This document shows positions 28,675-64,000 of a stretch of DNA of 64,000 nucleotides, one piece after another. The stretch covers positions 95,434,804 to 95,498,803 of the forward strand of contig CM026390.1 of the NCBI GenBank assembly GCA_014843695.1. The letters run 5' to 3'. Every line of letters starts with the position of its first letter. Position 1 is the stretch's first letter. The translations under genes and the position numbers were made by a program. The DNA is from Archivesica marissinica. Taxonomy: Eukaryota; Mollusca; Bivalvia; Venerida; Vesicomyidae. The notes beneath the pieces were generated by a model, which was not told the origin of the DNA, did not search any database, and saw only the letters and a list, made by a program, of their open reading frames with translations.

Positions 28675-28793
28675 CACTTCAATGTTGATACTGCCATCTA
28701 TGATTGCATCTGTAACATTCTCCGGAAGTTCCAGACTATTAATCATATAGTCTCGCAGATAAGCTGTGTCCTTCACAAAATCCTTGACCTTAA
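28675..28793 (-). CDS. e24, cassette 6 exon type 4 (phase 1-0), start of conserved ABCA core
   Basis: 119 bp between ATTTAG and GTGAGT. It encodes VKDFVKDTAYLRDYMINSL and LELPENVTDAIIDGSINIEV. This matches the ABCA ectodomain pattern L-x-LP-x-xV-x-D-x-(I/L) known from ABCA1. The GTGAGTGGATT donor shares its core with every unit of the adjacent array. Confidence 0.9.
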
Positions 28794-28869
28794 CTAAATA
28801 TACAATATTTTATGAAATTAAGCACTCATTTACAGTTACACAATATATGACAGAATAAGATGATACTTA

Positions 28870-30004
28870 TATTTATATCCAACAGCTGTAGTTATATCCT
28901 ACAGCTCTGTATTTATATCCTACAGCTGTATTTATATCCTACAGCTGTATTTATATCCTACAGCTGTATTTATATCCCACAGCTGTATTTATATCCTACA
29001 GCTGTATTTATATCCTACAGCTGTATTTATATCCCACAGCTGTATTTATATCCTACAGCTCTATATTTATATCCTACAGCTGTATTTATATCCTACAGCT
29101 GTATTTATATCCTACAGCTGTATTTATATCCTACAGCTCTATATTTATATCCTACAGCTGTATTTATATCATACAGCTGTATTTATATCCTACAGCTCTG
29201 TATTTATATCATACAGCTGTATTTATATCATACAGCTGTATTTATATCCTACAGCTGTATTTATATCCTACAGCTGTATTTATATCCTACAGCTCTGTAT
29301 TTATATCCTACAGCTGTATTTATATCATACAGCTGTATTTATATCCTACAGCTGTATTTATATCCTACAGCTCTGTATTTATATCCTACAGCTGTATTTA
29401 TATCCTACAGCTGTATTTATATCCTACAGCTCTGTATTTATATCCTACAGCTGTATTTATATCCTACAGCTGTATTTATATCCTACAGCTCTGTATTTAT
29501 ATCATACAGCTGTATTTATATCCTACAGCTGTATTTATATCATACAGCTGTATTTATATCCTACAGCTGTATTTATATCCTACAGCTCTGTATTTATATC
29601 CTACAGCTCTGTATTTATATCCTACAGCTGTATTTATATCCTACAGCTGTATTTATATCCTACAGCTCTGTATTTATATCCTACAGCTCTGTATTTATAT
29701 CCTACAGCTGTATTTATATCCTACAGCTCTGTATTTATATCCCACAGCTGTATTTATATCCAACAGCTGTATTTATATCCTACAGCTGTATTTATATCCT
29801 ACAGCTGTATTTATATCCTACAGCTGTATTTATATCCTACAGCTCTGTATTTATATCCTACAGCTCTGTATTTATATCCAACTGATGTATTTATATCCTA
29901 CAGCTGTATTTATATCCTACAGCTGTATTTATATCCAACAGCTGTATTTATATCCTACAGCTGTATTTATATCCTACAGCTGTATTTATATCCTACAGCT
30001 GTAT
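28870..30004. repeat. Tandem repeat, 19/21-bp unit, about 57 copies
   Basis: CTGTATTTATATCCTACAG with a 21-bp variant (extra CT). The unit has CTGTA...TACAG inverted ends. The long frame on the plus strand is a repeat artefact. A few units continue after the SINE at 30229-30260. Confidence 0.96.
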
Positions 30005-30228
30005 TTTGTGTGTTTTACGTTTATTTATCGTCGCTACCGGTTGCCCATATGAGATTAGTCATCTTAGATTTTGGAGGATAGTGCAATGATACAGACAGAG
30101 ACCGATTCCAGAGTCTCCTCTGGTTCTTTTACGTGCACAGTGTAAAGCACCGACACGAGACCTCAGTTTAACGTCCCATCTGAAAGACTGTTAATTTTAT
30201 TAGGATCAGACGGGGGATCGAACCTGTT
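30005..30228 (-). mobile_element. SINE family 1 copy inserted in the 19-bp array
   Basis: Minus strand, from TGTGTTTTACGTTTATTTAT to GGGGGATCGAACCTG, lacking the start of the tRNA-like head. Array units lie on both sides. Confidence 0.88.
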
Positions 30229-30395
30229 TACATACTACAGCTGTATTTATATCCTACAGCGTACAAAATTAAATAAAGCTCACCATAGTCTGAATCTAAC
30301 ATAATTAATATCCAAAACAATTCAGAAGATAATATCACATTTAGATCTTTACAAATACTATGTGCTTCATATCAATACATGGTTTACCATATGCC

Positions 30396-30668
30396 ACGAG
30401 GGCCTCCGTCATCACAGAGGCTCGAGTGTTTACGGTCGTTGACTTCAAATCACTTGACACTCAAGGCTGTGGGTCCAAATCCCATTGAGGGTATCACATT
30501 ATTTTAAGCATGGAAGCTATCCAGCTAGCGGAAGGTATCTATATCCGTGCATAAAATACTGCTTGGGAGCATCTTCCTCCACCAATAATAACTGGAGAGT
30601 CGCCATGTAACCTAAGATGTTGGTGCACCGTTAAACTACAAGTACTAACAAAGAAACAAGCAGACAAA
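30396..30668 (+). mobile_element. SINE family 4 copy ending at the e23 donor
   Basis: Shares GGTCGTTGACTTCAAA, a box B-like GGTCCAAATCCC and the tail ACAAAGAAACAAGCAGAC with the copy at 37212. Its 3' end meets the first coding base of e23. Confidence 0.75.
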
Positions 30669-30669
30669 C

Positions 30670-30803
30670 CATTTGCCATGAACACTGTCCTTAATGACGA
30701 GACTGCCAATATGCCATTAGCTATCAGCTTAATATCATCCAGAACTGCGTTCGTCATGTTGCTATCATCCAGGGTCTTAAAGTCGTCCAACAATGTATTC
30801 AAG
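30670..30803 (-). CDS. e23, cassette 6 exon type 3 (phase 2-1)
   Basis: 134 bp between GTTTAG and GTTTGT. It encodes LNTLLDDFKTLDDSNMTNAV and ILAVSSLRTVFMAN. The donor and the first intron bases match the 3' tail of a family-4 SINE lying directly downstream. Confidence 0.86.
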
Positions 30804-31024
30804 CTAAACAATAAATACAAATTATTTATTTTAGTGGTAGCATTACATGATTTTCAGTATTTCTATTATATCAAAATGATGCATACGCTCGTAAGAAATA
30901 GTCTATAGTTGTTGAACATGCCGCCGTATGCCATTTCTAATAGGGTTCACAATGGAATGTAATGTTATACTTTGCCTCAGATTATATTCTTTATGGATAG
31001 CTATAGCATCATAGCTTGTCTACA

Positions 31025-31272
31025 TGTCCGATTAGCGCAGTTGTTAGCATGCTCGCTTCTCACCAATGCAACCCGTGTTCGATCCTCGGACCGGGAAGTA
31101 TGTGAGATGGTACGGTGGTCACCAGATCGGACAGATGAGTTTTTTCCGTGTACTCCGGTTTCCTCCCACACGAATGACCACATTTACGCTTTCATCCGAG
31201 ACAACGAGAGTGATTAATATAAGTTGTTAGAACTTGCTTCGCAATCGTTGTAAAATAAATAAAGTTTAACCT
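31025..31272 (+). mobile_element. SINE family 2 copy, full length
   Basis: Head GTCCGATTAGCGCAGTTGTT, box B GTTCGATCC, body CTCCGGTTTCCTCCCAC, tail AAATAAATAAAGTTTAA. It ends about 62 bases from the e22 donor. Confidence 0.92.
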
Positions 31273-31334
31273 TTAAACCCTACATATATGTACACAAATA
31301 TTACTACAGCATTGATCATGAATTCATATATTAC

Positions 31335-31552
31335 TTTTCTAGGATTGCATCCGTGCCATTGTCCACCAACACTTGTTGAATGGTGCTCAGCAACTCCTTA
31401 TCTTCTGCCAGTGTGGATATGTTGACTGCACCAAGTATATCCATGAGGCGGGTCAGTGTCGACAGTCCTTCTATGTTACCAATTAGAGCTGATAAGTCAG
31501 TGGAGATCATTTCCCAGAATACCATAGAATCGTACTCATCCAAACTTTGAAG
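31335..31552 (-). CDS. e22, cassette 6 exon type 2 (phase 0-2)
   Basis: 218 bp between GATTAG and GTAATA. It encodes LQSLDEYDSMVFWEMISTDL, then helices around LSALIGNIEGL and LTRLMDILGAV, sequons NIS and NGT, and ends AILEN across the junction. Confidence 0.9.
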
Positions 31553-31609
31553 CTAATCGAAAATATTTGTTGGATATAAGAACAGAGCCATGAATAGACT
31601 ATTCATCTT

Positions 31610-31910
31610 TTATTTATTTTTTTATTATTTATTTTTAGACTATTCCTTGTACAGAGATATGCATGCAGAGACTATTGATGTAAATGATGCAGGTATCAAC
31701 ATAGCTTTCACTATATTATTATTTATTTCTACACTATTCCTTGTACATGTACAGAGATATGCATGCAGAGACTATTGATGTAAATGATGCAGGTATCAAC
31801 ATAGCTTTCACTATATTATTATTTATTTCTACACTATTCATTGTACAGAGATATGCATGCAGAGACTATTGATGTAAATGATGCAGGTATCAACATAGCT
31901 TTCACCAATG
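31610..31910. repeat. Tandem repeat, about 100-bp unit, 3 copies
   Basis: Units hold CAGAGATATGCATGCAGAG, GTAAATGATGCAGGTATC and TATTATTTATTTCTACAC. Confidence 0.88.
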
Positions 31911-32226
31911 CTCATAATTTATAAAATTATGTCGAGTACATTTTGAGTGAAATATCAACATAACCTTAAAATTTTAACTGCTACCTTCTGAACTGATTTT
32001 ATAAAAATAGATACATGTAAAATATGGTCGACCTGAATGATGTAATGTCTGAATGCATCTTATACATGAACAAACAAACACAGCGTTACAAATTTCAGTT
32101 TGCTAATCCGTCTTGAATAAAGAGATGAGCAACAGCATGAAGAGCTAAGACCAACACATGTCGCTTGACCCACAGAAACAATAAATTATACACTATTTAT
32201 AGATAATTTGTTTGCTACATTGGAAA

Positions 32227-32962
32227 AATAGTGAAACATATGAATAGCATTTGAGATGGTACGGTGGTCGCCAGATCAGACAGGTGGGTTTTCTCCAGGT
32301 ACTCCGGTTTCCTCCCACACCAATAACACATATACGCTTTCATCCACGCCAACGAAAGTGATTAATATAAGTTGTTAAAACTTTCTTTGCAATCGTTATA
32401 AAATAAATAAAGTTTAAGTCGTTAAATAGATAATTTGTTTGCTACATTGGAAAATAGTGAAACGTATGAATAGCATTTGAGATGGTACGGTGGTCGCCAG
32501 ATCAGACAGGTGGGTTTTCTCCAGGTACTCCGGTTTCCTCCCACACCAATAACACATATACGCTTTCATCCACGCCAACGAAAGTGATTAATATAAGTTG
32601 TTAAAACTTTCTTTGCAATCGTTATAAAATAAATAAAGTTTAAGTCGTTAAATAGATAATTTGTTTGCTACATTGGAAAATAGTGAAACGTATGAATAGC
32701 ATTTGAGATGGTACGGTGGTCGCCAGATCAGACAGGTGGGTTTTCTCCAGGTACTCCGGTTTCCTCCCACACCAATAACACATATACGCTTTCATCCACG
32801 CCAACGAAAGTGATTAATATAAGTTGTTAAAACTTTCTTTGCAATCGTTATAAAATAAATAAAGTTTAAGTCGTTAAATAGATAATTTGTTTGCTACATT
32901 GGAAAATAGTGAAACGTATGAATAGCATTTGAGATGGTACGGTGGTCGCCAGATAGTGAAAC
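32227..32962. repeat. Tandem array of a truncated SINE, 227-bp unit
   Basis: A 5'-truncated family-2 SINE plus flank (GTTTGCTACATTGG, GTGAAACGTATGAATAGC) is repeated three times and part of a fourth. GAGATGGTACGGTGGTCGCC recurs at 227-base spacing. It ends close to the e21 donor. Confidence 0.93.
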
Positions 32963-33016
32963 GTATGAATAGCTGTGTAGTTGTGTAGAGAAAACTAAAT
33001 AAATAAACATACAAAC

Positions 33017-33175
33017 CTCCTGTAATATGTTTGCATATTCCATAAGGTTGTTAGCAACCTCCGCAGCAAGTGCTTTATCTTCTCCACATAGAGTAGCATT
33101 GAGGTTCGGGTCAAGCATACCAAGGTCACCAGTTGAACACAATTTTTCAATGATCTCCTCACTTGTACTGTTCTC
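33017..33175 (-). CDS. e21, cassette 6 exon type 1 (phase 0-0)
   Basis: 53 codons between TTGTAG and GTTTGT. The type-1 cysteine pair is closer here (16 residues, LC...TLC) with NAT between. A compact version of the unit. A SINE-derived tandem array ends about 60 bases past the donor. Confidence 0.87.
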
Positions 33176-33337
33176 CTACAATAAACATTATCTATCATTA
33201 TCCGTGGAGGCTAGAGATACAAGCTGTACACACCATACCCATGTGCATGTGCACTGATACACAGCATAGTGAAAAGAAATGACAATTATATATATATTTA
33301 GTGTCATATTTTTAATACCGAACTTTACTATAATAGC

Positions 33338-33838
33338 TTTAAAGCGACACTATATCGGTGAAAATGCAAATGTCTGCAGAATGTAATTTGCTATTATATG
33401 GTAATATTTTTTCGAAATAATTGCCTCATAAACTTAGTATTTCAACAAATAAACAAACGTCCTATATGCGGTTTGTTGACATAATAATAGAAAATAATGA
33501 CATTCATGCGAAATACAATGCCTTTATCCTGAATAACATGAGATATGGTACATATTTACAGTGATATCTCACATTTGTGCTTAATCTTAGTTAAATTATC
33601 TCTAAACAAAAGTATCGCATGTTTAGTTATTGACTCTAATGACAAGCAATTCACGAGCGTGGATGTCCGTTATATGAAATCCTACTTTCACTTTTGAAAG
33701 ATTGTATATGACAAAAACACTGTTTATTGACTCAATGTTAGTGTTCGAATGTATTCGGAAGAATTTGTAGTAGCAATGCATTCATACGTTAAAAAAATGC
33801 ATTTTATTTCCTTTTTGGCGATGTAATGTCGCCTTAAA
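33338..33838. mobile_element. MITE-like element, TTTAAAGCGACA ends
   Basis: Begins TTTAAAGCGACACTATAT and ends GATGTAATGTCGCCTTAAA, an imperfect inverted repeat. A diverged relative lies at 51586-52047. Non-coding. Confidence 0.65.
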
Positions 33839-33931
33839 TGTGTCCCTTAATATTCAGTTTACATCATAGCCGAGTGTCCATACCCCAGTCAATTGATTAA
33901 ATTTGATAGACGACTGAATATCTATTAACTA

Positions 33932-34094
33932 TACAGTCAAACCTGTATTAGTGGTCACCTGTATTAAGCAATCAGTTTTCAAATTCCCAATATGCTGGTT
34001 TACTATACAATTGACCTCTATTAAGCAGCCATCTGTATTAAGCAGCCACTATCTGTGATTCCCTTGGCTGGCTGCTTAAGACAGGTTTAACTAT
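33932..34094. mobile_element. MITE family A copy
   Basis: TACAGTCAAACCTGTATTAG to ACAGGTTTAACTATA, with internal AAGCAGCCA motifs. Confidence 0.8.
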
Positions 34095-34195
34095 ACTGCC
34101 CAATTTCATGAACTGAGATCAGAGTAAACAGAGAATTTGCAACAACATTGTACTTGATATAACATTAGACATAGACTATTTAATAATCCCCTTAC

Positions 34196-34323
34196 AGCAT
34201 TCTGTAGGTACGACATATTCACTGCAGACAGTAATGAGTCCATGTTAGATGACAGAGTATCTTGTAAGAAGGATGAGATGTCTGTTAGATTCATTTCTAA
34301 TCTTTCTTGGAGCTCTTTCACCG
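34196..34323 (-). CDS. e20, cassette 5 exon type 4 (phase 1-0)
   Basis: 128 bp between TTTTTCAG and GTAAGG. It encodes VKELQERLEMNLTDISSFLQ and MDSLLSAVNMSYLQNA. It resembles e24 (VKDF...LRDYM...), supporting a common origin of type-4 exons. Confidence 0.88.
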
Positions 34324-34555
34324 CTGAAAAACAAACATTTATGATAATATTTATACAAATTATGTTTAATAATATTTTATTGCATTTTTTTCATACATTA
34401 CATTACAATTATACAGACAATGAAATACGTGGAAAACAATATGAAATGATTAATTATTATTGCTGCATACGATTCAAATCTGGAAAATAAAATGAGTTGG
34501 GCTACAAGTTAAGTTATGACAACATTATTTACAGCTCTCCTCATACAGTTAGGGG

Positions 34556-34804
34556 TTGTCCGATTAGCGCAGTGGTTAGCATGCAGGCTTCTCATCAATG
34601 CAACCTGGCTTCGATCCTCGGACCGGGAAGTATGTGAGATGGTATGGTGGTCGCCAGATCGGACAGGTGGGATTTTTCCGGGTACTCCGGTTTCCTCCCA
34701 CACGAATGACCACATTTACGCTTTCACCCGCGCCAACGAGAATGATTAATATAAGTTGTTAGAACTTGCTTCGCAATCGTTGTAAAATAAATAAAGTTTA
34801 AACT
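34556..34804 (+). mobile_element. SINE family 2 copy, full length
   Basis: Head GTCCGATTAGCGCAGTGG, box B-like CTTCGATCC, body GGGTACTCCGGTTTCCTCCC, tail AAATAAATAAAGTTTAA. Confidence 0.92.
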
Positions 34805-34929
34805 AAGTTATTTGTTAGACAGTTCAGATTGTTGCAGAATCGAGGAAGCTATAATGGCAAATATAGCTGCTGTAATATTATGCCAATTCTACATACACCC
34901 TTCACACAAGGTGGATTCAACTTGAATTT

Positions 34930-36410
34930 GAATGCAGCTTGGTACATATATCTGGAATGCAGCATGGTACATATATCTGGAATGCAGCTTGGTACATATA
35001 TCTGGAATGCAGCTTGGTACATATATCTGGAATGCAGCTTGGTACATATATCTGGAATGCAGCTTGGTACATATATCTGGAATGCAGCTTGGTACATATA
35101 TCTGGAATGCAGCTTGGTACATATATCTGGAATGCAGCTTGGTACATATATCTGGAATGCAGCTTGGTACATATATCTGGAATGTAGCTTGGTACATATA
35201 TCTGGAATGCAGCTTGGTACATATATCTGGAATGCAGCTTGGTACATATATCTGGAATGCAGCTTGGTACATATATCTGGAATGCAGCTTGGTACATATA
35301 TCTGGAATGCAGCTTGGTACATATATCTGGAATGCAGCTTGGTACATATATCTGGAATGCAGCTTGGTACATATATCTGGAATGTAGCTTGGTACATATA
35401 TCTGGAATGCAGCTTGGTACATATATCTGGAATGCAGCTTGGTACATATATCTGGAATGCAGCTTGGTACATATATCTGGAATGCAGCTTGGTACATATA
35501 TCTGGAATGCAGCTTGGTACATATATCTGGAATGTAGCTTGGTACATATATCTGGAATGTAGCTTGGTACATATATCTGGAATGCAGCTTGGTACATATA
35601 TCTGGAATGCAGCTTGGTACATATATCTGGAATGCAGCTTGGTACATATATCTGGAATGCAGCTTGGTACATATATCTGGAATGCAGCTTGGTACATATA
35701 TCTGGAATGCAGCTTGGTACATATATCTGGAATGCAGCTTGGTACATATATCTGGAATGCAGCTTGGTACATATATCTGGAATGCAGCTTGGTACATATA
35801 TCTGGAATGTAGCTTGGTACATATATCTGGAATGTAGCTTGGTACATATATCTGGAATGTAGCTTGGTACATATATCTGGAATGCAGCTTGGTACATATA
35901 TCTGGAATGCAGCTTGGTACATATATCTGGAATGCAGCTTAGTACATATATCTGGAATGCAGCTTAGTACATATATCTGGAATGTAGCTTGGTACATATA
36001 TCTGGAATGTAGCTTGGTACATATATCTGGAATGCAGCTTGGTACATATATCTGGAATGCAGCTTGGTACATATATCTGGAATGCAGCTTGGTACATATA
36101 TCTGGAATGCAGCTTAGTACATATATCTGGAATGTAGCTTGGTACATATATCTGGAATGTAGCTTGGTACATATATCTGGAATGCAGCTTGGTACATATA
36201 TCTGGAATGCAGCTTGGTACATATATCTGGAATGCAGCTTGGTACATATATCTGGAATGCAGCTTGGTACATATATCTGGAATGCAGCTTGGTACATATA
36301 TCTGGAATGCAGCTTGGTACATATATCTGGAATGTAGCTTGGTACATATATCTGGAATGCAGCTTGGTACATATATCTGGAATGCAGCTTGGTACATATA
36401 TCTGGAATCA
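34930..36410. repeat. Minisatellite, 25-bp unit, about 59 copies
   Basis: Very uniform AATGCAGCTTGGTACATATA plus TCTGG; the main variant is GTAGC for GCAGC. All large frames over it, on both strands, are artefacts because the unit has no stop in several frames. Confidence 0.97.
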
Positions 36411-36553
36411 ACTGTTTCAACATCCATCTATCATACTCACATCTATTTCATAAACACACACACACACCAATGATCCTTCTATAAAATCTTAAAACGTGCA
36501 GGACAGGAACACCCACATGACCGAACAGGAGGACACAAATGCTCCCTGGTCAA

Positions 36554-36934: not shown

Positions 36935-37074
36935 CCTGTTCTTGTTGATTGTAAATCTGGAGCATTGTGTCAATGATCGCTGAGGAATCGTTAGTCCTCA
37001 GCAACTGAGAGAGCACAGCCTGCAGCTCCTTGTCCTGCAGTAATGCGAGCACATCTGAACCAGTGCTGAATAAC
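36935..37074 (-). CDS. e19, cassette 5 exon type 3 (phase 2-1)
   Basis: 140 bp between TTTCAG and GTAAGA. It encodes LFSTGSDVLALLQDKELQAV, LSQLLRTNDSSAIIDTML and ends QQEQ. The frame runs on past the donor, but only GTAAGA gives the phase that e20 needs (Ala codon). Confidence 0.88.
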
Positions 37075-38769: not shown

Positions 38770-38954
38770 TTTGAGATATCATTGCGTAACTCATCTGACT
38801 CAGAGATGACATCAGTCATACACTGTACCAAGTTGTGTGATCCATTGAGGAGTTTCGTCATAGCATGTGTATGCGTGGCAGCAAACTCCATGTAGACAGG
38901 GTAACTATCGCACGAGAATTCTGTCCTTGTCTCTCCTGACATCATTTGACGGAT
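38770..38954 (-). CDS. e18, cassette 5 first exon (phase 0-2, hybrid)
   Basis: 185 bp between CGACAG and GTAAGC. By phase it is a type-2 exon, but by content it looks like type 1: two cysteines 29 residues apart (FSC...VQC) with an NGS sequon. Cassette 5 therefore lost one exon, or types 1 and 2 merged. The 32-bp array starts about 70 bases past the donor. Confidence 0.87.
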
Positions 38955-39774: not shown

Positions 39775-39869
39775 CTTTTCAATTTCCATGGGAACACCTA
39801 GCTCTTCCATGAGTTGAATAATCGTTGTTATATTTGTAGTATTCGAGTTACAGACAGCTTTGTCTATAT
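39775..39869 (-). CDS. e17, cassette 4 exon type 4 (phase 1-0)
   Basis: 95 bp between TTATAG and GTACAG; the shortest type-4 exon. It encodes IDKAVCNSNTTNITTIIQLM and ends MEIEK. One cysteine and the sequons NTT and NIT are visible. Confidence 0.84.
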
Positions 39870-40202: not shown

Positions 40203-40351
40203 TAGACGTTGCGAAGGATACTGACCTAGATGGACGAAGGATACTGACCTAGATGGACGAAGGATACTGACCTAGATGGATGAAGGATACTGACCTAGAT
40301 GGACGAAGGATACTGACCTAGATGGACGAAGGATACTAACCTAGATGGACA
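40203..40351. repeat. Tandem repeat, 23-bp unit, about 6 copies, overlapping the e16 splice donor
   Basis: Unit GAAGGATACTGACCTAGATG plus GAC. The last unit covers the last 11 coding bases of e16 and its GTTAGT donor. The other units carry the same junction as CTAG-GTCAGT. Confidence 0.93.
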
Positions 40352-40474
40352 TTCATTATGGAGAATGAAATCATCACAAATGAATGGTAGGTGTCTATGT
40401 ATGGTTTCACCCAGTCATAGTACATCGGGACAGAACTGACATACTGGTATACACGATCACACGTTTCTTCCGAA
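40341..40474 (-). CDS. e16, cassette 4 exon type 3 (phase 2-1)
   Basis: 134 bp between ATTGCAG and GTTAGT. It encodes SEETCDRVYQYVSSVPMYY and DWVKPYIDTY and ends NVHLD across the junction. It has one cysteine, perhaps paired with the lone cysteine of e17. Its last bases and donor form part of a 23-bp unit repeated six times downstream, so the true donor sits beside near copies of itself. Confidence 0.84.
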
Positions 40475-43115: not shown

Positions 43116-43309
43116 CTTGGTTCCTGTGAGTTATTTGTGTATGGCTGCAGTGAGCCAAGGGCCATTTCTATCCATCCTCCCCATTTTGTTGAATTTACGT
43201 TCCCTAGATCAAACAATCGTTCTGTAATTCGCTCTACCAAACTAGACATATACGCCCACGTATCATTGTTAACAACCACTGTACCGTTGGTCGTCAGTAT
43301 GTCTTCAAT
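43116..43309 (-). CDS. e15, cassette 4 exon type 2 (phase 0-2)
   Basis: 194 bp between TTTTCAG and GTATCT. It encodes IEDILTTNGTVVVNNDTW, the helix LVERITERLFDL and sequons NGT, NDT, NST and NNS. AG plus T of e16 makes Ser, which fixes the donor although the frame stays open beyond it. Confidence 0.88.
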
Positions 43310-44691: not shown

Positions 44692-44886
44692 CTTTTGCAT
44701 CAGCATTCCCATATCAACAGCATTCATTATGTCATCTAGATATGGCTGCCGAGAAGCATATTCCGTGCAGAGATCGTGTTGCAAAGATGTCACGTTAACA
44801 TCATCTGGGAAGCTGAATGTTTCCAGGAATAGGGTCATGTTGCAGACGGTCGAGTTCCAGTCGTTATTGAACATTAAAGTTATGAA
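44692..44886 (-). CDS. e14, cassette 4 exon type 1 (phase 0-0)
   Basis: 65 codons between TTTCAG and GTTAAT. Type-1 cysteine pair 24 residues apart (VCNMT...HDLC) with sequons NMT and NVT, then PYLDDIMNAVDMGMLMQK. The 44-bp array ends about 26 bases past the donor. Confidence 0.89.
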
Positions 44887-45756: not shown

Positions 45757-45881
45757 CTTAGCTGGGTCTATGTATGACATCGTCAACGAGGATAATGACT
45801 CATTACCAGCCAAACTATGTAAGAACCTTGACATGGCATCAGCATTGGGCAGGATATCTGTGATTGGAATTCTCTCGTTTC
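45757..45881 (-). CDS. e13, cassette 3 exon type 4 (phase 1-0)
   Basis: 125 bp between TTATAG and GTAGGA. It encodes NERIPITDILPNADAMSRFL and ends MSYIDPAK. The MSRFLHSL helix matches the type-4 helices of e5, e20 and e24. Confidence 0.87.
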
Positions 45882-46418: not shown

Positions 46419-46537
46419 CAGTAAGTTGTCCAAGGATCATGTCGATGTATTCCTGCACTTCCACAACTACCAACAACATTCTTTTAAATTCTACGAGCTG
46501 TTCCTGTGAGGTCATCATTCCCAATACGTCCATTAAC
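46419..46537 (-). CDS. e12, cassette 3 exon type 3 (phase 2-1)
   Basis: 119 bp between TTGCAG and GTGTGT. It encodes LMDVLGMMTSQEQLVEFKRM and ends EYIDMILGQLTG. It is strongly helical, without cysteine. It joins e13 through a split Gly codon. Confidence 0.87.
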
Positions 46538-46813: not shown

Positions 46814-46983
46814 CCGGTTAATCCCGCTGTCGGATTCTTCTGCAGCCAATAATCTGTTGTCGAGTTATTCATGAGACCATTCAGTTTCAGCTTCTCAAAC
46901 ATCTCCAAAATGTTTTGCATTGTCATAGTGTTGTTTTTACCAGCTTCATATTCCGCCATTTTTTCATACACAATATAGTCAAA
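46814..46983 (-). CDS. e11, cassette 3 exon type 2 (phase 0-2)
   Basis: 170 bp between ATTGTAG and GTAAGT. It encodes FDYIVYEKMAEYEAGKNNT, a helix (MQNILEMFEKLKL) and NNSTTDYWLQ. GG plus the first G of e12 makes Gly. Confidence 0.88.
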
Positions 46984-47701: not shown

Positions 47702-47911
47702 CAATGCCTGTATTGTCTCAATGTCTGCTGTCGTAAACACTGCCATTGACAAGCTATTGTTCCAGTCAGACTGATTGCTCATACACAGTTTCTTTATCCA
47801 GTCCTTGTCCTGTGTAAGATTGGCTTGCAAATACATTATGTATTTTTCAAACTCTTCGTCATCACAAACAAATGCATTTAGTATGCCTTCCCTTGTCGGT
47901 GCTTCTTTGCC
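47702..47911 (-). CDS. e10, cassette 3 exon type 1 (phase 0-0)
   Basis: 70 codons between an AAG acceptor (GTTTTAAG) and a GTATGT donor. The type-1 cysteine pair is 26 residues apart (VCDDEEFEKYI...KKLC) with NLT between, followed by SNQSDWNNSLSM. The acceptor is weaker than its neighbours, but phase 0 fits both sides. Confidence 0.85.
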
Positions 47912-48428: not shown

Positions 48429-48544
48429 CGAAATATCGCCAAAAACACTGGATAGAACAGTCAGCCAATCTTGGGTGGATGTAATAGATTCCACCAATGA
48501 TAGGAGTCTTTCTGGATCATTGAAAATGCTCTCCATGTCTCCAC
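48429..48544 (-). CDS. e9, cassette 2 exon type 4 (phase 1-0)
   Basis: 116 bp between ATACAG and GTAAAT. It encodes GDMESIFNDPERLLSLVES and ends VFGDIS. The type-4 helix (RLLSLVESI) is clear. The whole intron downstream is a 66-bp tandem array that begins about 28 bases from the donor. Confidence 0.86.
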
Positions 48545-50323: not shown

Positions 50324-50424
50324 TTTGAAGTTGCTCCAACAATGGCATAATGAGCCGGTTAATGGTACTTGTCAAATTCGTCATCTCGTTTCCAGGGTAA
50401 TAAATGTTCATCACATTCCACAGC
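50324..50424 (-). CDS. e8, cassette 2 exon type 3 (phase 2-1)
   Basis: 101 bp between ACTGCAG and GTACGT. It encodes LWNVMNIYYPGNEMTNLTS, then INRLIMPLLEQLQ. The last A plus GT of e9 makes Ser. A frame also continues into the intron, but the phase of e9 fixes the donor. Confidence 0.85.
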
Positions 50425-51339: not shown

Positions 51340-51530
51340 ACGTTTGGATCCATCAATGCAGATGATAGGAATGACATTATACCATCCCAGTCGGGCGCCT
51401 GTGATAGGGGATTGCTAGCGTTTAGAGATGATACATTCCAGTCCATCAAGAGCCCAATAAATGTCTTCATGTTGGAAGATAACGAAGTCCAGTTCAGGTG
51501 TGCGTCAGAACTGTTCCATATGCTCATGAG
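51340..51530 (-). CDS. e7, cassette 2 exon type 2 (phase 0-2)
   Basis: 191 bp between TTTCTAG and GTAAGC. It encodes LMSIWNSSDAHLNWTSL, then a helical run and SQAPDWDGIMSFL. Sequons NSS, NWT, NVS and NAS are present. A nearer GT would give the wrong phase; ending at GTAAGC leaves two bases that join e8 as Val (MDPNV-LWNV). Confidence 0.88.
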
Positions 51531-52511: not shown

Positions 52512-52703
52512 CTTTTCCTCGAACATGGCTAGATTAATTTCATTTTGAAGGACTCGCTGCCACGTGACTGTATCCATGCACATCACCTCTGTCAGCGCTA
52601 TGGATGTGGTACTTGCAGTACCGTTGGCAGATATGTACTCGGCAACGGTGTCATTGTTACACATAGCCCTCAGCAGAACGGGAGCCAGGAGGATTTCGAT
52701 GAG
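52512..52703 (-). CDS. e6, cassette 2 exon type 1 (phase 0-0)
   Basis: 64 codons between a TTATAG acceptor and a GTGTGT donor. The type-1 cysteine pair is 26 residues apart (MC...MC), with sequons NDT and NGT between. A family-2 SINE ends about 8 bases past the donor, so the early intron is SINE sequence. Confidence 0.88.
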
Positions 52704-55480: not shown

Positions 55481-55605
55481 CTTTTCTTTATCAATTGTAT
55501 TGTTGGCGTATTCGGAATTGGTAACATCTTTTAGATTTGCCAACGCTTCCAGGAATCTAATGATATCTGAGGAATTCTTGGAAAGTGCCTCAACTGTGAA
55601 ATTAT
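55481..55605 (-). CDS. e5, cassette 1 exon type 4 (phase 1-0)
   Basis: 125 bp between TTGTAG and GTATGA. It encodes NFTVEALSKNSSDIIRFLEA and ends NNTIDKEK. Type-4 exons share a helix like IIRFLEAL followed by a short loop. Sequons NFT, NSS and NNT point to a glycosylated extracellular segment. Confidence 0.87.
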
Positions 55606-55936: not shown

Positions 55937-55961
55937 TATGTTTAATACAGCAGATAAATGT

Positions 55962-56390: not shown

Positions 56391-56445
56391 ACCTCCTTAG
56401 AGGATACCACGTATATGTAATCCATTATGCTTGATATTTGTAGCT

Positions 56446-56850: not shown

Positions 56851-57114
56851 ACTGAAGGATGATACAGATGGATAGTGGAATGGAGAATATGAGGGATACT
56901 CATATATTATATATTCTGTGTTCATATAAATATTTTTAGATTTCAAAAGAAGCACAACGAGGGGGGTATTTGTTGTATAATGGACAGTGTTATATATATC
57001 CATACACTTATGAACTTGTTTATATTTGACGGTCTATATGCAAATAATAGGGTAATACGTAATTTAATTAATGGACTAGTCTATTCTGATTGAGAAAGTA
57101 TTTCCATTATTAGT

Positions 57115-57660
57115 TTAAACAATATTTTATTTCAATGAATATACATAGTCTAATGATCACAATATGAAAATACATGTAGGATTGAGGAGAAAGCAACTTG
57201 CTTATATGGTTACCTCTTTCCATTATTATCGTACATTTCAATTTTATCTTTAATTGTTGCAATGTTCAATGTGTATGGTCTGATTGAGATATATACTAAG
57301 CATGATAATTGATGGTATTGTTGAATTACATTTACTCTGGAAAATAAAGTATTTTGCTAATAGAATTATGAAGTTTATGACAGTTTTTGTTTTACTAGAA
57401 TGTGCAGTATTTGCATTGCAGAATGATATATTTTCATAGGTAGATTTGATGCAAGTTCTAATCTTCTAGAACGTAGAAGTTGTTTAATTCCAGAGCAAAA
57501 TGATTGCACAATATTACATTCCAAAAACATATGTTTATTTGAGTCGATTGACATCAGACAATCAGACAATAAATCGCAGTGATTATATGGTATTAGTTAT
57601 TCGGCACAATTCGCATGAGATATTTATATTGGAATGCCATAAGTTTTGTACTTTAAATTG
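57115..57660 (-). pseudogene. LINE fragment with zinc-binding reverse-transcriptase tail
   Basis: Minus strand encodes FKVQNLWHSNINISCELC, a stop, then CLMSIDSNKHMFLECNIVQS and FCSGIKQLLRSRRLEL. C-x-x-C followed by H-x-FLEC is the zf-RVT pattern at the C-terminus of some LINE proteins. The frame is broken. Confidence 0.72.
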
Positions 57661-57958
57661 ATGAATGTATGTTATAATTTATTTACTTATTCATGAACGA
57701 AAAAACACAAACATATGTTATAATTTATTTACTTATTCATGAACGTATGTTATAATTTATTTACTTATTCATGAACGTATGTTATAATTTATTTACTTAT
57801 TCATGAACGTATGTTATAATTTATTTACTTATTCATGAACATATGTTATAATTTATTTACTTATTCATGAACGTATGTTATAATTTATTTACTTATTCAT
57901 GAACGTATGTTATAATTTATTTACTTATTCATGAACGTATGTTATAATTTATTTATGA
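57661..57958. repeat. Tandem repeat, 32-bp unit, about 9 copies
   Basis: GTATGTTATAATTTATTTAC then TTATTCATGAAC. The last partial unit reaches within about 7 bases of the e4 donor. Confidence 0.95.
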
Positions 57959-57965
57959 TCATTAC

Positions 57966-58072
57966 CTGAAACGTCCGAAAGCCTATCTATCATGTATTCC
58001 AAGAATATATCAATGGTTGCAAACGTCTTCTTCACATCTGAATCCAACATGCCCAACTCTATTAGCGGCGCC
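57966..58072 (-). CDS. e4, cassette 1 exon type 3 (phase 2-1)
   Basis: 107 bp between a TCTAG acceptor and a GTAATG donor, encoding APLIELGMLDSDVKKTF and a following amphipathic helix (IFLEYMIDRL). The final G plus AT of e5 makes Asp. The 32-bp AT-rich array ends only about 7 bases beyond the donor. Confidence 0.88.
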
Positions 58073-58329
58073 CTAGATAGAAAAAATACAAAATATGAAA
58101 TCCGTTGTATTGATTGTAGGTGTGTATGTTTTATGTTTATTTTCCGTCGGTACTCCAATTAGCTCCCACAGGAATCACAATATATATACGCTTTCATCCA
58201 CCACAAACGCGCAACATGTCTACGTGTTTTGACGCGCAACATGTCTACGTCCCCGCGAGGGGTTCGACATTAAAGGAAGATAGATAGATAGAAACGGAGT
58301 GATGAACATTTGGGGAAGATAGGAATACG

Positions 58330-58622
58330 TGTGTGTTTTACGTTTATTTATCGTCACTACCGGTTGCCCATATGAGCGACGCCTCATGAAGAGATTAGTC
58401 ATTTTAGATTTTTGGAGGATAGTGCAATGATACAGACAGAGACCCATTCCAGAGTCTCCTCTGGTTCTTTTACGTGCAATGTGTACAGCACCGACAAGAG
58501 AGACCTTGGTTTAAAGTCCCATCTGAAAGACTAATAATTTTATTAGGGTCAGACAGGGGATCGATCCTGCGCTCCCTGGATTACCAGTCCAGCGTATTAC
58601 CACTGGACTAGAGATCCGTCAG
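58330..58622 (-). mobile_element. SINE family 1 copy, near full length
   Basis: Minus strand: tail GTGTGTTTTACGTTTATTTA, middle GGAGGATAGTGCAATGATAC, head complement CACTGGACTAGAGATCCGTC. Confidence 0.9.
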
Positions 58623-58675
58623 ATTGAGGGTTAACTAATATATTATTTATATCATACTACCATCTATTACGTGCT

Positions 58676-58906
58676 TCATACAAATTTATTTAGCTTGATT
58701 GTGAAACAAGTTCCTACAACTTATATTAATCACTATCGAGACCTCATTCAAGGTGGAATCCATCGCCACGAGGGAGAGAAAAAGAGACACTGTGGAATTT
58801 AAATGCATTGCCTAAGGGCACACTCGTAATGGCTACAGCTGGGCGCAAACCACAGGCATTTCGCACCTGAAGCGAACGTGTTACCACTGCGCTATCACAA
58901 CTTTCT
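58676..58906 (-). mobile_element. SINE family 3 copy
   Basis: Minus strand: AATTTATTTAGCTTGATTGT, AATCACTATCGAGACCTCAT, then CATTTCGCACCTGAAGCGAA and TGCGCTATCACAACTTTC. Confidence 0.85.
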
Positions 58907-59184
58907 TACAATTCTGCTATTGAGTAATGGATCTGTGCAGCTCTGTCTAATGACCCTGTGCTATGTTTTAATTCATGTGCATATACATAGATGAAACATT
59001 AACAATGATCACAGCCAGCCAATTAAACCTACATACTAAGTAACTAGCAAACATGTATTCTGTCTGAATATGGTACTCACAAACCAAAGCAATTCCATAA
59101 CCTTGAGATTATGAGAGACATTTACCAATTCACTTCAAATTTATTTATTGTCGGAGTTTCTACAAAACAATTAACAACGATTAT

Positions 59185-60010
59185 AACTATTTACCGAAAC
59201 AATACATTATAACTATTTACCGACACAATACATTATAGCTATTAACCGACACAATACATTATAGCTATTTACCGACATAATACATTATACTGGTAACTAT
59301 TTACCGACATAATACATTATAACGATTTACCGACACAATACATTATAACTATTTACCGACACAATACATTATAACTATTAATAATTTACCGACATAATAC
59401 ATTATACTGGTAACTATTTACCGACACAATACATTATAACTATTTACCGACATAATACATTATACTGGTAACTATTTACCGACACAATACATTATAGCTA
59501 TTTACCGACATAATACATTATACTATTAACTATTTACCGACACAATACATTATAGCTATTTACCGACACAATACATTATAACTATTTACCAACACAATAC
59601 ATTATAACTATTTACCGACACAATACATTATAACTATTTACCGACACAATACATTATAACTATTTACCGACACAATACATTATAACTATTTACCGACACA
59701 ATACATTATAACTATTTACCAACACAATACATTATAACTATTTACCGACACAATACATTATAACTATTTACCGACACAATACATTATAACTATTTACCGA
59801 CACAATACATTATAACTATTTACCGACACAATACATTATAACTATTTACCGACACAATACATTATAACTATTTACCAACACAACACATTATAACTATTTA
59901 CCAACATAATACATTATAGCTATTTACCAACACAATATATTATAACTATTTACCAACACAATATATTATAAATAACTATTTAGCAACACAATATATTATA
60001 ACTATTTACC
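59185..60010. repeat. Minisatellite, 26-bp unit, about 31 copies
   Basis: AATACATTATAACTATTTAC plus CGACAC. Occasional variants carry ACTGGT or an added TAACTA. Confidence 0.95.
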
Positions 60011-60209
60011 GATTACCGCACATTTATCATACAACATCTGGTTACGTAACAGACAAAGGAATTCACCACAAAGGTCGAATATACATTACAGGATAAATCA
60101 AACTTTATTACCAAGGGAGGTAAGAGAAAGAAAAAGCAGAGTCGCTCATTAAAACTGGTTGCTTATACTACAATGAAGTATATACATGTTGAAAATGAAA
60201 TCCTCTTAC

Positions 60210-60469
60210 AAGGAGTTGATGAGACCCGTGTACTGGCCTCCGAGGAAGTTCTCCATTCCTTCTAGAAGGGTCGCTACAGAGGAATTACCATCATTTGCTG
60301 CCTGGGCTCCATTGAGCAATTCTAGCAGGTCAAACCAGTATGTGGAGTTTTGCCAGTCCAACGGCAGCTCGATAGCCGGCGGATTCTCTAACAACATCTG
60401 AAGCCGCTGCATAAGCTGCGTGTTTTGCTTTGCGAGTTCTGTCCAATTGGTACTAGTATTCGGTGATAG
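60210..60469 (-). CDS. e3, cassette 1 exon type 2 (phase 0-2)
   Basis: 260 bp between TGCAG and GTAAGAG; the longest type-2 exon. It encodes a mostly helical, cysteine-free segment with sequons NTS, NWT, NST and NSS and the tryptophans WQNSTYWFDLLELL. The last two bases join e4 to make Leu (INSL-APLIELG). The intron downstream carries the 26-bp array. Confidence 0.9.
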
Positions 60470-60523
60470 CTGCAGTGATATGAACATTGACATTGACTAC
60501 CCTCTGTTATGGTATTGCAAGAT

Positions 60524-61150
60524 TGAATTGAACATACATATCATGTAGGCCAATACAGGACAAACATATCATGTAGGCCAATACAGGACAAACATATAAT
60601 GTAGGAGGTTACTGGACATACATATCATGTAGGAGGTTACTGGACATACATATCATGTAGGAGGTTACTGGACATACATATCATGTAGGAGGTTACTGAA
60701 CATACATATCATGTAGGACGTTACTGAACATACATATCATGTAGGCCAATACAGGACAAACATATCATGTAGGATGTTACTGGACATACATATCATGTAG
60801 AAGGTTACTGGACATACATATCATGTAGGAGGTTACTGAACATACATATCATGTAGGACGTTACTGAACATACATATCATGTAGGCCAATACAGGACAAA
60901 CATATCATGTAGGATGTTACTGGACATACATATCATGTAGAAGGTTACTGGACATACATATCATGTAGGAGGTTACTGAACATACATATCATGTAGGACG
61001 TTACTGAACATACATATCATGTAGGCCAATACAGGACAAACATATCATGTAGGATGTTACTGGACATACATATCATGTAGGAGGTTACTGGACATACATA
61101 GCATGTAGGACGTTACTGACCATACATATCATGTAGGATGTTACTGAACA
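60524..61150. repeat. Minisatellite, 28-bp unit, with about 140-bp higher-order blocks
   Basis: ACATACATATCATGTAGGAG plus GTTACTGG, with interspersed variants CCAATACAGGACAA. The order of variants repeats about every 140 bases. Confidence 0.94.
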
Positions 61151-61615
61151 TACATATCATTTATGACGTTACTACAATTGGCAATACATATCATGTATGA
61201 CGTTACTACAATTGGCAATACATATCATGTATGACGTTACTACAACTGGCAATACATATCATGTATGACGTTACTACAATTGGCAATACATATCATGTAT
61301 GAGATTACTGGCAATACATATCATGTATGACATTACTACAACTGGCAATACATATCATGTATGACGTTACTACAACTGGCAATACATATCATGTATGACA
61401 TTACTACAATTGGCAATACATATCATGTATGACGTTACTACAATTGGCAATACATATCATGCATGACATTACTACAATTGGCAATACATATCATGTATGA
61501 CATTACTACAATTGGCAATATATATCATGTATGACGTTACTACAACTGGCAATACATATCATGCATGACATTACTACAATTGGCAATACATATCATGTAT
61601 GACGTTACTACAACT
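61151..61615. repeat. Minisatellite, 34-bp unit, about 13 copies, next to e2
   Basis: GACGTTACTACAATTGGCAA then TACATATCATGTAT. It shares ACATATCATGTA with the array before it, so one may descend from the other. Confidence 0.94.
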
Positions 61616-61623
61616 GAACTTAC

Positions 61624-61824
61624 TATATTCATTATGTCCTCGACGTGGAAAACCCCGAAAAATTCCTGCATCAAGATTCCTAAATTAAGTTTACAGAAGT
61701 TTTCCTTGACATGGGTGATGTTTGCCGTGACATTAGGTGGAATTGTCAGGTATTTGGTTACATCAGAGCTGCATACGTCCTCCAACACTACAGTTGTATT
61801 GCTATTTTCAAACATTTTTTGAAA
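61624..61824 (-). CDS. e2, cassette 1 exon type 1 (phase 0-0)
   Basis: 67 codons between a TTTCCAG acceptor and a GTAAGT donor. It has the type-1 signature: two cysteines 25 residues apart (VC...FC) with the sequons NVT and NIT between them, then an amphipathic stretch (LGILMQEFFGVFHVEDIMNI). The 34-bp tandem array starts about 8 bases beyond the donor. Confidence 0.85.
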
Positions 61825-61999
61825 CTGGAAAGTAAAGGTAAAATGTGTGAGTTGATACATTCATTGGCAATACATAGCATGTATGACGTCACGACACTAC
61901 ACTCACATCTCGGGTATATCAACTTATGCTTCTTCATCTTAGTTCAAAATACTATAACATGTACAATTTGTCTTTATTTCAGAAACGTTTGATTCTGTA

Positions 62000-63596
62000 T
62001 TGATTTAAATGCCATGTATCACGTCGATGTATGTACTGTATATATATTTAAATGCCATGTATCACGTGCTGTATGTACTGTATATATATATAAATGCCAT
62101 GCATCACATCGATGTATGTACTGTATATATATATATAAATGCCATGTATCACGTCAATGTATGTACTGTATATATATATAAATGCCATGTATCACGTCGA
62201 TGTATGTACTGTATATATATATAAATGCCATGTATCACGTCGATGTATGTACTGTATATATATTTAAATGCCATGTATCACGTCGATGTATGTACTGTAT
62301 ATATATATAAATGCCATGCATCACGTCGATGTATGTACTGTATATATATATAAATGCCATGTATCACGTCGATGTATGTACTGTATATATATATAAATGC
62401 CATGTATCACGTCGATGTATGTACTGTATATATATATAAATGCCATGTATCACGTCGATGTATGTACTATATATATATATAAATGCCATGTATCACGTCG
62501 ATGTATGTACTGTATATATATATAAATGCCATGTATCACGTCGATGTATGTACTATATATATATATAAATGCCATGTATCACGTCGATGTATGTACTGTA
62601 TATATATATAAATGCCATGTATCACGTCGATGTATGTACTGTATATATATATAAATGCCATGTATCACGTCGATGTATGTACTGTATATATATATAAATG
62701 TCATGCATCACGTCGATGTATGTACTGTATATATATATAAATGCCATGTATCACGTCGATGTATGTACTGTATATATATTTAAATGCCGTGTATCACGTC
62801 GATGTATGTACTGTATATATATATAAATGCCATGTATCACGTCGATGTATGTACTGTATATATATATAAATGCCGTGTATCACGTCGATGTATGTACTGT
62901 ATATATATATAAATGCCATGTATCACGTCGATGTATGTACTGTATATATATATAAATGCCATGTATCACGTCGATGTATGTACTGTATATATATATAAAT
63001 GCCATGTATCACGTCGATGTATGTACTGTATATATATATAAATGTCATGCATCACGTCGATGTATGTACTGTATATATATATAAATGCCATGTATCACGT
63101 CGATGTATGTACTGTATATATATTTAAATGCCATGTATCACGTCGATGTATGTACTGTATATATATTTAAATGCCATGTATCACGTCGATGTATGTACTG
63201 TATATATATATAAATGCCATGTATCACGTCGATGTATGTACTGTATATATATATAAATGCCATGTATCACGTCGATGTATGTACTGTATATATATTAAAA
63301 TGCCATGTATCACGTCGATGTATGTACTGTATATATATTTAAATGCCATGTATCACGTCGATGTATGTACTGTATATATATAATTAAATGCCATGTATCA
63401 CGTGATGTATGTACTGTATATATATATAAATGCCGTGTATCACGTCGATGTATGTACTGTATATATATTTAAATGCCATGTATCACGTCGATGTATGTAC
63501 TGTATATATATATAAATGCCATGTATCACGTCGATGTATGTACTGTATATATATATAAATGCCATGTATCACGTGCTGTATGTACTGTATATATAT
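62000..63596. repeat. Minisatellite, about 42-bp unit, about 37 copies
   Basis: AAATGCCATGTATCACGTCG, ATGTATGTACTG and a TA run of variable length (TATATATATA). Lies between e1 and e2. Confidence 0.96.
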
Positions 63597-63981
63597 TTGC
63601 TATGTTATGAATATCTCATGTTGTTGCAAATCTGCTTCCTGAGAATATGCAAATAAACTGAAACTGAAGCTGATTTGTGACAATTTACTGATTTCTAATA
63701 ATTAATTAATTTATTTTCCGACGTAATTATGATTAATTCAATTGCTAATTGTTATGACTACTGATTGTTATTCTTAGTTAATTATTGATACAACCTATTT
63801 CATGCTTAGCCATTGCCAAGTTTAGTGTATGTGTTTACTTTGCAAGGTCTAATATATCGAAAGAGGAGCGAACACATGTACTGATCAAACTATACTTCAC
63901 TCACGAGAAACAGTGTTTATAAAATATCTCAACATTTAATAATTTAAAGAAAACGATCTGAAGACAAAATATTCAGATTAC
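63597..63981. other. Intron sequence next to e1
   Basis: AT-rich, with no recognised repeat or exon. Confidence 0.45.
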
Positions 63982-64000
63982 CTTTGGGGTATTGACTGAC
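63982..64000 (-). CDS. e1, partial exon at window edge (ABCA-like ectodomain)
   Basis: Only 19 coding bases are visible, reading SVNTPK up to a GTAATC donor. It must end in phase 0 to join e2, which fits the cassette rule that the fourth exon type ends in phase 0. The basic last residue is also like other fourth exons (IDKEK, IDPAK, MEIEK). Its start lies outside the window. Confidence 0.45.

What the first reader, a model, noticed from the sequence alone, without database searches (positions are those of the whole stretch)
28675..64000. ABCA ectodomain built from an amplified four-exon cassette
Seen: exon phases in gene order run 0-0, 0-2, 2-1, 1-0 and repeat. Full sets are e2-e5, e6-e9, e10-e13, e14-e17 and e21-e24; e18-e20 is a three-exon version. 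Coding sizes are 693, 600, 624, 618, 453 and 630 nt, each a multiple of three, so whole cassettes can be copied without breaking frame. Known: ABCA12 and ABCA13 have a longer first ectodomain than ABCA1. Inference: repeated exon-cassette duplication made this giant ectodomain. I know of no description of such a cassette structure, but could not search.
Basis: partly seen in the sequence, partly recalled or inferred. Interest (0 to 1): 0.93.

Follow-up and report, generated by a model that had tools for sequence, protein, structure and literature searches.

The report
Giant ABCA ectodomain of repeated exons
A giant ABCA-type lipid transporter gene in a bivalve mollusc has a huge extracellular part built from about a dozen tandem four-exon units, and two of the four exons can be traced by sequence to exons that an ordinary ABCA1-type gene carries once, which suggests how such oversized ectodomains arise.

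Summary
The array runs on about 50 kb past the window: 12 units in all (ten four-exon units with identical phases, one of six exons, one of three) in one 3,301-residue open frame, matched colinearly by a Mactra antiquata protein. Profile comparison shows the units are related: 15 of 66 pairs beat every reversed decoy, involving 10 of 12 units. Each unit carries one Cys pair, about every 210 residues; seven molluscs have 11-17 pairs, most units cluster by position across gastropod and bivalves, and species differ by about whole units. An ABCA1-like paralogue in the same genome has the exons N2-C-D-A with phases 1-2, 2-1, 1-0, 0-0, and both array ends align to that part of ABCA4/ABCA1. Best reading: tandem amplification of an ABCA1-type ectodomain exon block. 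A and D exons show this by sequence, C only by phase, B not at all. Not shown: transcripts, structure, function. Exons for TM2-TM6 and the start of NBD1 were not found at this locus, which has assembly gaps.

The parts
63982..64000 (-).
61624..61824 (-). A7 (e2), 0-0, Cys pair
60210..60469 (-). B7 (e3), 0-2
57966..58072 (-). C7 (e4), 2-1
55481..55605 (-). D7 (e5), 1-0
52512..52703 (-). A8 (e6), 0-0, Cys pair
51340..51530 (-). B8 (e7), 0-2
50324..50424 (-). C8 (e8), 2-1
48429..48544 (-). D8 (e9), 1-0
47702..47911 (-). A9 (e10), 0-0, Cys pair
46814..46983 (-). B9 (e11), 0-2; only 11 of 56 residues identical to Mactra
46419..46537 (-). C9 (e12), 2-1
45757..45881 (-). D9 (e13), 1-0
44692..44886 (-). 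A10 (e14), 0-0, Cys pair
43116..43309 (-). B10 (e15), 0-2
40341..40474 (-). C10 (e16), 2-1; weak by coding score, supported by Mactra alignment (17 of 44 residues identical)
39775..39869 (-). D10 (e17), 1-0; 10 of 31 residues identical to Mactra, 14 of 31 to Mya
38770..38954 (-). B11 (e18), 0-2; carries the unit's Cys pair (first Cys at exon residue 15), perhaps an A-like exon; profiles do not decide
36935..37074 (-). C11 (e19), 2-1
34196..34323 (-). D11 (e20), 1-0
33017..33175 (-). A12 (e21), 0-0, Cys pair
31335..31552 (-). B12 (e22), 0-2
30670..30803 (-). C12 (e23), 2-1
28675..28793 (-). D12 (e24), 1-0; with A13 aligns to ABCA1
27420..27620 (-). A13, 0-0, Cys pair; last A exon, aligns to ABCA1
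26653..26833 (-). exon after A13 (0-1), start of the canonical ABCA ECD1 remainder
26225..26368 (-). z1 exon (1-1)
25436..25575 (-). z2 exon (1-0), IIW.YLKP..GKILYTP motif shared with ABCA1
23908..24069 (-). z3 exon (0-0)
22593..22845 (-). z4 exon (0-1)
20849..21158 (-). z5 exon (1-2), conserved ECD1 end (YKIRM.VDNV ... FTQLQD)

Best explanation
This is the first extracellular domain of a giant ABCA12/13-like transporter of a bivalve (closest annotated protein: Mactra antiquata, 40% identity over the ECD). SHOWN by computation: the ECD is an array of 12 units, ten of them four exons with phases 0-0, 0-2, 2-1, 1-0; units are related to each other (10 of 12 shown above all decoys); their A and D exons are homologous to the A and D exons at the ABCA1-like ends of the array, and the ABCA1-like paralogue of the same genome has N2-C-D-A exons with phases 1-2, 2-1, 1-0, 0-0; both array ends align to that ABCA4/ABCA1 segment; mollusc species differ by about whole units. 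INFERRED: tandem intragenic duplications of an ABCA1-like exon block, in-frame because each unit starts and ends in phase 0, multiplied this segment; the Cys pair of each unit forms a disulphide that pins one helical module; the N-glycosylated module chain lengthens the ABCA ectodomain, either extending the lipid path away from the membrane or acting as a long tether to an extracellular acceptor, barrier or matrix. Whole units, and A exons singly, could be skipped without a frameshift.
For: Exon chain and phases: 10 of 10 four-exon units share the pattern. Independent protein: Mactra colinear, model 1-3240 to 23-3267, exons aligned at 19-70%; two Mya annotations show no difference of 8 or more residues before residue 3508, i.e. 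none in the ECD. Unit homology: 66 pairs, median 27.4 against 16.4 for 132 reversed decoys, 15 of 66 above the decoy maximum; cassette 7 against the whole ECD, E 6e-9 to 1e-5 for k6, k5, k3, k4, k8, in register to within about 10 residues, best reversed score 31.8; 79 of 132 off-diagonal window hits above the decoy maximum. Cys pairs: 13 here, 11-17 in six other molluscs, one in a fish ABCA1. Source block: ABCA1-like paralogue exons; N-terminus to ABCA4 1-236; D12-A13 onward to ABCA1 143-630; A family against A1 and A13 95.6% and 95.5%, D family against D0 81.6%, targets left out of the families; k12 against moth residues 1921-2111 (92%) and 44-185 (81%). Whole-unit evolution: tree of 99 units. 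Ectodomain: 81 sequons against 34.4 +/- 5.2 shuffled. Rest of gene in order from the second part of NBD1 to NBD2.
Against: Single-sequence leave-one-out profiles reach p<=0.05 for A 10 of 12, B 7 of 12, C 0 of 14, D 5 of 13, and the own type scored best in only 10, 6, 4 and 4 of these. 51 of 66 pairs do not beat the decoy maximum; k9 and k11 never do. Of the five cassettes run against the whole ECD (7, 5, 3, 10, 1), k10 barely exceeds its reversed control (44.7 against 38.6) and k1's control reached 44.9. C family against C0 is not distinguishable from the reversed target (15.6% against 12.1%); B matches neither N2 nor the exon after A13, so half the unit is of unproven origin. In the paralogue only N2 and A were hit by tblastn; C and D there rest on the exon scan, phases, lengths and resemblance by eye. 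The ABCA1-like protein of Dreissena has three Cys pairs by my loose rule, of which one matched the A profile. Inserted lengths are alignment gaps placed inside units, not at their edges. Exons for TM2-TM6 and the first part of NBD1 were not found at this locus (0 of 9 matches). A-exon structure prediction was low-confidence (pLDDT 57.6). No transcripts, no functional data.
Confidence: 0.82

Rival explanations
1. The repeated phase pattern is convergence or chance in an unrelated helical ectodomain; exons are not copies.
For: C and D exons alone show little similarity; 51 of 66 cassette pairs score no better than the best reversed decoy.
Against: The period-4 phase score was never reached in 100,000 shuffles; in-register profile matches far above decoys; a Cys pair in each unit; A and D families match the ABCA1-like end exons.
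Confidence: 0.05
2. The array grew mainly by exon-level events (copying or conversion of single exons) rather than whole four-exon units, so unit phylogeny mixes exon histories.
For: Crassostrea virginica units 5 and 6 share a ~77-residue identical block that coincides roughly with one B exon; unit k1 holds an extra 1-2/2-1 exon pair and k11 has one exon fewer.
Against: Between-species gains and losses total about one, two or three units, and most units cluster by position over their whole length. The Crassostrea block may be an annotation or assembly artefact.
Confidence: 0.2
3. The long ectodomain is ancestral to all ABCA12/13 and vertebrate ABCA13 holds the same array with its introns lost, rather than this being a protostome expansion.
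For: Weak internal repeats in vertebrate ABCA13 with offsets 228, 112 and ~725; k12 and k13 align weakly to its end (24% and 17%; 13% and 13%); a 4.8-kb ABCA13 exon is known (title in the reference lists of PMC7948424 and PMC13161189).
Against: Only 3 of 100 self hits exceed the decoy maximum in the widest alignment; inner cassettes do not match ABCA13; no periodic Cys pairs there.
Confidence: 0.25
4. The locus is a decaying pseudogene or an assembly composite.
For: Exons for TM2-TM6 and the first part of NBD1 not found at this locus; 1-kb N runs and large tandem arrays in that interval.
Against: 61 exons, 3,301 residues and no stop, aligned end to end with Mactra; C-terminal exons in order to NBD2. 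Splice dinucleotides are GT-AG by construction of the model and are no evidence.
Confidence: 0.07

Closest known systems
ABCA1 / ABCA4 / ABCA7 (canonical ABCA, solved structures)
   Same: Same N-terminus and ECD1 end; the ABCA1-like paralogue of this genome has N2-C-D-A exons of the same phases as the array start; ABCA1-type proteins show an A module with a Cys pair
   Different: One such exon block found instead of 12 units; ECD1 ends near residue 620-715 in the ABCA1-type proteins P0042 and P0047 instead of ~3,300
ABCA12 / ABCA13 of vertebrates
   Same: Full ABCA layout with an abnormally large ECD1; the last ~500 residues of ECD1 align to turtle ABCA13 at 26%
   Different: No periodic Cys pairs and no clear match of the inner cassettes; part of the ABCA13 ECD lies in a single 4.8-kb exon (title of Prades 2002, seen only in reference lists)
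ABCA12-like giants of molluscs (Mactra, Mya, Sinanodonta, Potamilus, Haliotis, Crassostrea) and of a millipede and moths (one moth record named 'lipid droplet defective')
   Same: Cys pair about every 210 residues and unit orthology among the molluscs; first gap 300-381 in molluscs, millipede and moths
   Different: Unit number varies (11-17 Cys pairs in molluscs); exon phases there not tested; arthropod pairs become irregular after the fifth or sixth, and arthropod self-comparison is not or hardly above decoys (0 of 22 moth, 2 of 31 millipede)

Membership tests
ABCA subfamily, full transporter | N-terminal cytosolic helix + TM1 followed by the ECD1 start motif | tested here: met
   aligns to ABCA4 1-236, E 6e-19; to ABCA1 and ABCA7 over residues 3-82 only
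ABCA subfamily, full transporter | conserved ECD1 C-terminal part | tested here: met
   aligns to ABCA1 143-630, E 1.7e-29
ABCA subfamily, full transporter | second part of NBD1, TMD2 and NBD2 downstream on the same strand, in order | tested here: met
   13 of 32 matches of the Mactra C-terminal part lie at C5:95,223,453-95,257,616, same strand, in order, query 385-1461
ABCA subfamily, full transporter | TM2-TM6 of the first TMD and the first part (Walker A) of NBD1 | tested here: not met
   0 of 9 matches of the Mactra residues for this part lie at this locus, 114 candidates scored; the interval contains N gaps, so absence from the animal is not shown; the colinear Mactra protein has this part
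ABCA12/13-like giant ECD1 | ECD1 much longer than in ABCA1 | tested here: met
   3,301-residue N-terminal frame from exon 1 to the end of z5
ABCA12/13-like giant ECD1 | closer to ABCA12/13 than to ABCA1 in a tree of NBDs or TMDs | not tested
   names come from annotated hits only; no NBD tree was built
Intragenic exon-block duplication | repeat units delimited by introns of equal phase | tested here: met
   10 of 10 four-exon units start and end in phase 0; all 12 unit lengths are multiples of three
Intragenic exon-block duplication | sequence homology between units in register | tested here: met
   not shown for k9 and k11, and C exons alone not significant

The most novel reading that the evidence does not exclude
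The giant ectodomains of all ABCA12/13-type transporters, vertebrate ABCA13 included, descend from one ancient tandem amplification of the ABCA1 ectodomain exon block; vertebrates erased the cassette borders by intron loss (the large ABCA13 exon) and lost the Cys pairs, while molluscs still show the original exon-cassette architecture and keep gaining and losing whole modules.
Probability: 0.25. Interest if true: 0.82.

Novelty: new variant of a known kind. Interest (0 to 1): 0.66.

Why it matters
A paper on ABCA13 states that its N-terminal region has no homology to any known human protein and no well-conserved domain (PMC7948424, passage seen), and a 2026 structural review notes abnormally large ECDs in ABCA2, ABCA12 and ABCA13 and does not contain the word 'repeat' (PMC13161189, passages seen). 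The mollusc gene offers a concrete origin: multiplication of an exon block that the ABCA1-type gene carries once. It defines a unit (~210 residues, one Cys pair) that can be expressed and solved on its own, and it turns the question of what a giant ABCA ectodomain does into tests of module number. In the Mactra and moth proteins scanned, no Pfam family reaches its cut-off within the array; a newer family, PF26955, is listed for most of these giants and for ABCA1-type proteins, but I do not know where in them it lies.

Tried and rejected
Vertebrate ABCA13 as an obvious carrier of the same repeats: 6 of 85, 6 of 89 and 3 of 100 self hits above the decoy maximum in three alignments; left open. 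B exon as a chimera of the exon after A13 and N2: no detectable similarity to either. Extra exon x1 as a second N2, and e18 as a plain A or B exon: no support by profile. Small proteins carrying single units: none. Wider search with a four-sequence profile: 6 hits, none a new non-vertebrate giant ABCA (capped candidate list). My first model gave unit 6 only three exons; the Mactra alignment exposed the missed exon C6 (66530-66394) and the model was corrected. Literature: 10 searches of an open-licence library without preprints; four returned no paper and two listed only a small part of many. I saw no listed title about ABCA ectodomain repeats; only two papers were looked into, by passages.


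Full report
OBSERVATION. The window is C5:95,434,804-95,498,803 of a 1.54-Gb assembly. Fetching 150 kb upstream and 50 kb downstream showed that the array continues: the first A exon is at window coordinate 113,749, TM1 at 126,020, and exon 1 (MGVFRQLGALFWKN...) starts at 135,067. The final N-terminal model has 61 exons, 9,905 coding bases, 3,301 residues and no stop. Units k2-k10 and k12 have four exons, 10 of 10 with phases 0-0, 0-2, 2-1, 1-0. k1 has six exons (981 nt; an extra pair with phases 1-2, 2-1) and k11 three (453 nt). All 12 unit lengths are multiples of three. Over 59 of the 60 introns the phase at position i equals that at i+4 in 46 of 55 cases; 100,000 shuffles reached at most 35.

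IS THE MODEL REAL? A protein annotated in Mactra antiquata (P0001, 'ABCA member 12', 4,801 aa) aligns colinearly with residues 1-3240 of the model at 40.3% identity; in a global alignment all its exons are aligned, at 19-70% identity. That alignment exposed one exon I had missed (C6, 66530-66394), which restores unit k6 to four exons. Downstream, 13 of 32 matches of the Mactra C-terminal part lie on the same strand and in order at C5:95,223,453-95,257,616, query 385-1461, from the second part of NBD1 to NBD2, so the gene would span about 346 kb. Against this, the exons for the part before that (TM2-TM6 and the Walker-A part of NBD1) were not found at this locus: a dedicated search scored 114 candidates and gave 9 matches, all in other ABCA loci; direct comparison found none in the window or the 100 kb fetched downstream. 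N runs lie at window 18,023-19,022 and in L031. I read this as an assembly gap, but it is not proven.

ARE THE UNITS COPIES? With single sequences, leave-one-out profiles recognised A exons (10 of 12 at p<=0.05) and B exons (7 of 12), D poorly (5 of 13), C not at all (0 of 14). With profiles from this gene and six other molluscs, 66 unit pairs had median hhalign score 27.4 against 16.4 for 132 reversed decoys; 15 of 66 exceeded the decoy maximum of 37.8 (best k6-k7 97%, k5-k7 96%), and these 15 involve 10 of 12 units, not k9 or k11. Unit 7 against the whole ECD returned k6, k5, k3, k4 and k8 in register to within about 10 residues, E 6e-9 to 1e-5, scores 54-79 against 31.8 for the best reversed hit. 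Of the other four units tried, k5, k3 and k1 also beat their controls (62.9 against 27.0, 52.5 against 31.2, 65.5 against 44.9), k10 barely (44.7 against 38.6). In windowed self-comparison 79 of 132 off-diagonal hits exceeded the decoy maximum. Each unit carries one Cys pair: in the ECD beyond residue 150, 26 of 32 Cys fall in 13 pairs (neighbouring Cys 17-34 apart) spaced 201-229, except 325 after k1 and 149 after k11. The k11 pair lies in exon 38954-38770 with its first Cys at exon residue 15 (13-18 in A exons, by eye). That suggests an A-like exon with a shifted 3' phase and B lost, but neither the A nor the B profile recognises it.

ORIGIN OF THE UNIT. The N-terminus including A1 aligns with ABCA4 residues 1-236 (to ABCA1 and ABCA7 over 3-82 only), and D12-A13 onward with ABCA1 143-630: both array ends map to the same ABCA-type segment, and they are the strongest off-diagonal self-match (offset 2,648, 97.8%). 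The ABCA1-like paralogue of the same genome on C12 has exons TM1 0-1, N2 1-2, C 2-1, D 1-0, A 0-0, lengths 100, 142, 134, 125 and 267 nt, the same phases as the start of the array. There N2 and A are hit by tblastn with Dreissena P0047; C and D rest on the exon scan and resemblance by eye. By profile the A family matches A1 (95.6%) and A13 (95.5%) and the D family matches D0 (81.6%); the C family is not separable from a reversed control and B matches nothing. So A and D link to ABCA1-type exons by sequence and phase, C by phase and position only, and B, which must close the phase cycle, is of unknown origin.

HISTORY. Cys pairs number 13 in this gene and 13, 11, 15, 14, 16 and 17 in Mactra, Mya, Sinanodonta, Potamilus, Haliotis and Crassostrea; the long first gap (322-381) and the short late gap (149-154) are in all seven. 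Among differences over 40 residues, four species have about three units' length extra at one place (632, 631, 620, 579 aa), Crassostrea a further 202 aa; Mya lacks 460 (about two units) and the two unionids 221 (one); the remaining ones are 42 aa extra in Mya's x1, 67 aa missing in Potamilus, exactly exon A13, and overhangs at the end of the alignment. A midpoint-rooted tree of 99 units groups most by position: 8 groups hold all 7 species (support 0.87-0.999 for seven, 0.30 for one), 4 hold six, 3 hold four; k5 of this gene, Mactra and Mya lies next to group 4, and Crassostrea 4-6 form a local expansion. Most units therefore predate the gastropod-bivalve split. Moths and a millipede have first gaps of 300-350 and then four gaps of 205-253 before the pairs become irregular; the A profile hits the millipede protein (E 6.5e-12) and, weakly, two of three moths, reversed sequences none; k12 hits moth residues 1921-2111 and 44-185 (92% and 81%); but arthropod self-comparison is not or hardly above decoys.

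FUNCTION (inference). 81 N-glycosylation sequons against 34.4 +/- 5.2 in shuffles fit an extracellular chain. ABCA ECDs are described as base, tunnel and stalk, with tunnels ~60 A high (PMC13161189, passages seen). I propose that the array lengthens this ectodomain with Cys-pinned helical modules, as a longer lipid path or a tether. The only structural attempt was low-confidence.

VERDICT. Added here: the link of the block to an ABCA1-type gene, the positional orthology of units across molluscs, and their gain and loss. Vertebrate ABCA13 remains open.

Noticed in passing
window 1-14681; 18023-19022; 19023-20323: Huge tandem arrays (about 50 bp x 246, 45 bp x 63, 65 bp x 20) and a 1,000-N gap lie in the intron after the ECD1 end; exons for TM2-TM6 and the first part of NBD1, expected beyond it, were not found at this locus.
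   Followed up: partly
window 28870-63596: Many introns of the array hold a different minisatellite (for example 19 bp x 58, 25 bp x 59, 32 bp x 37, 43 bp x 37); 121,430 of 264,000 bases around the gene were masked as tandem repeats.
   Followed up: no
window ~31020-31270, ~32250-32410, ~34560-34800: Dispersed, SINE-like elements recur in the introns: two with a tRNA-like head (GATTAGCGCAGT.GTTAGCATGC...), all with similar tails (...TTCGCAATCGTTGTAAAATAAATAAAG or near it); the reading as SINEs is by eye only.
   Followed up: no
L025 (C5:95,411,418-95,412,717): Two good exon candidates of an apparently unrelated gene lie on the same strand inside the presumed long intron downstream of ECD1; possibly a nested gene.
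   Followed up: no
protein P0008 (Crassostrea virginica) ~1253-1330 and +239: Two neighbouring units share an identical ~77-residue block coinciding roughly with one B exon: recent exon copy or conversion, or an annotation artefact.
   Followed up: partly
protein P0006 (Potamilus), opposite model residues 2839-2905: The annotated protein lacks exactly the residues of the phase 0-0 exon A13: exon skipping or an annotation miss, and a hint that the exon borders are the same there.
   Followed up: no
vertebrate ABCA13 (P0017) ~900-2780: Weak internal repeats with offsets 228, 112 and ~725 residues, hardly above reversed decoys.
   Followed up: partly
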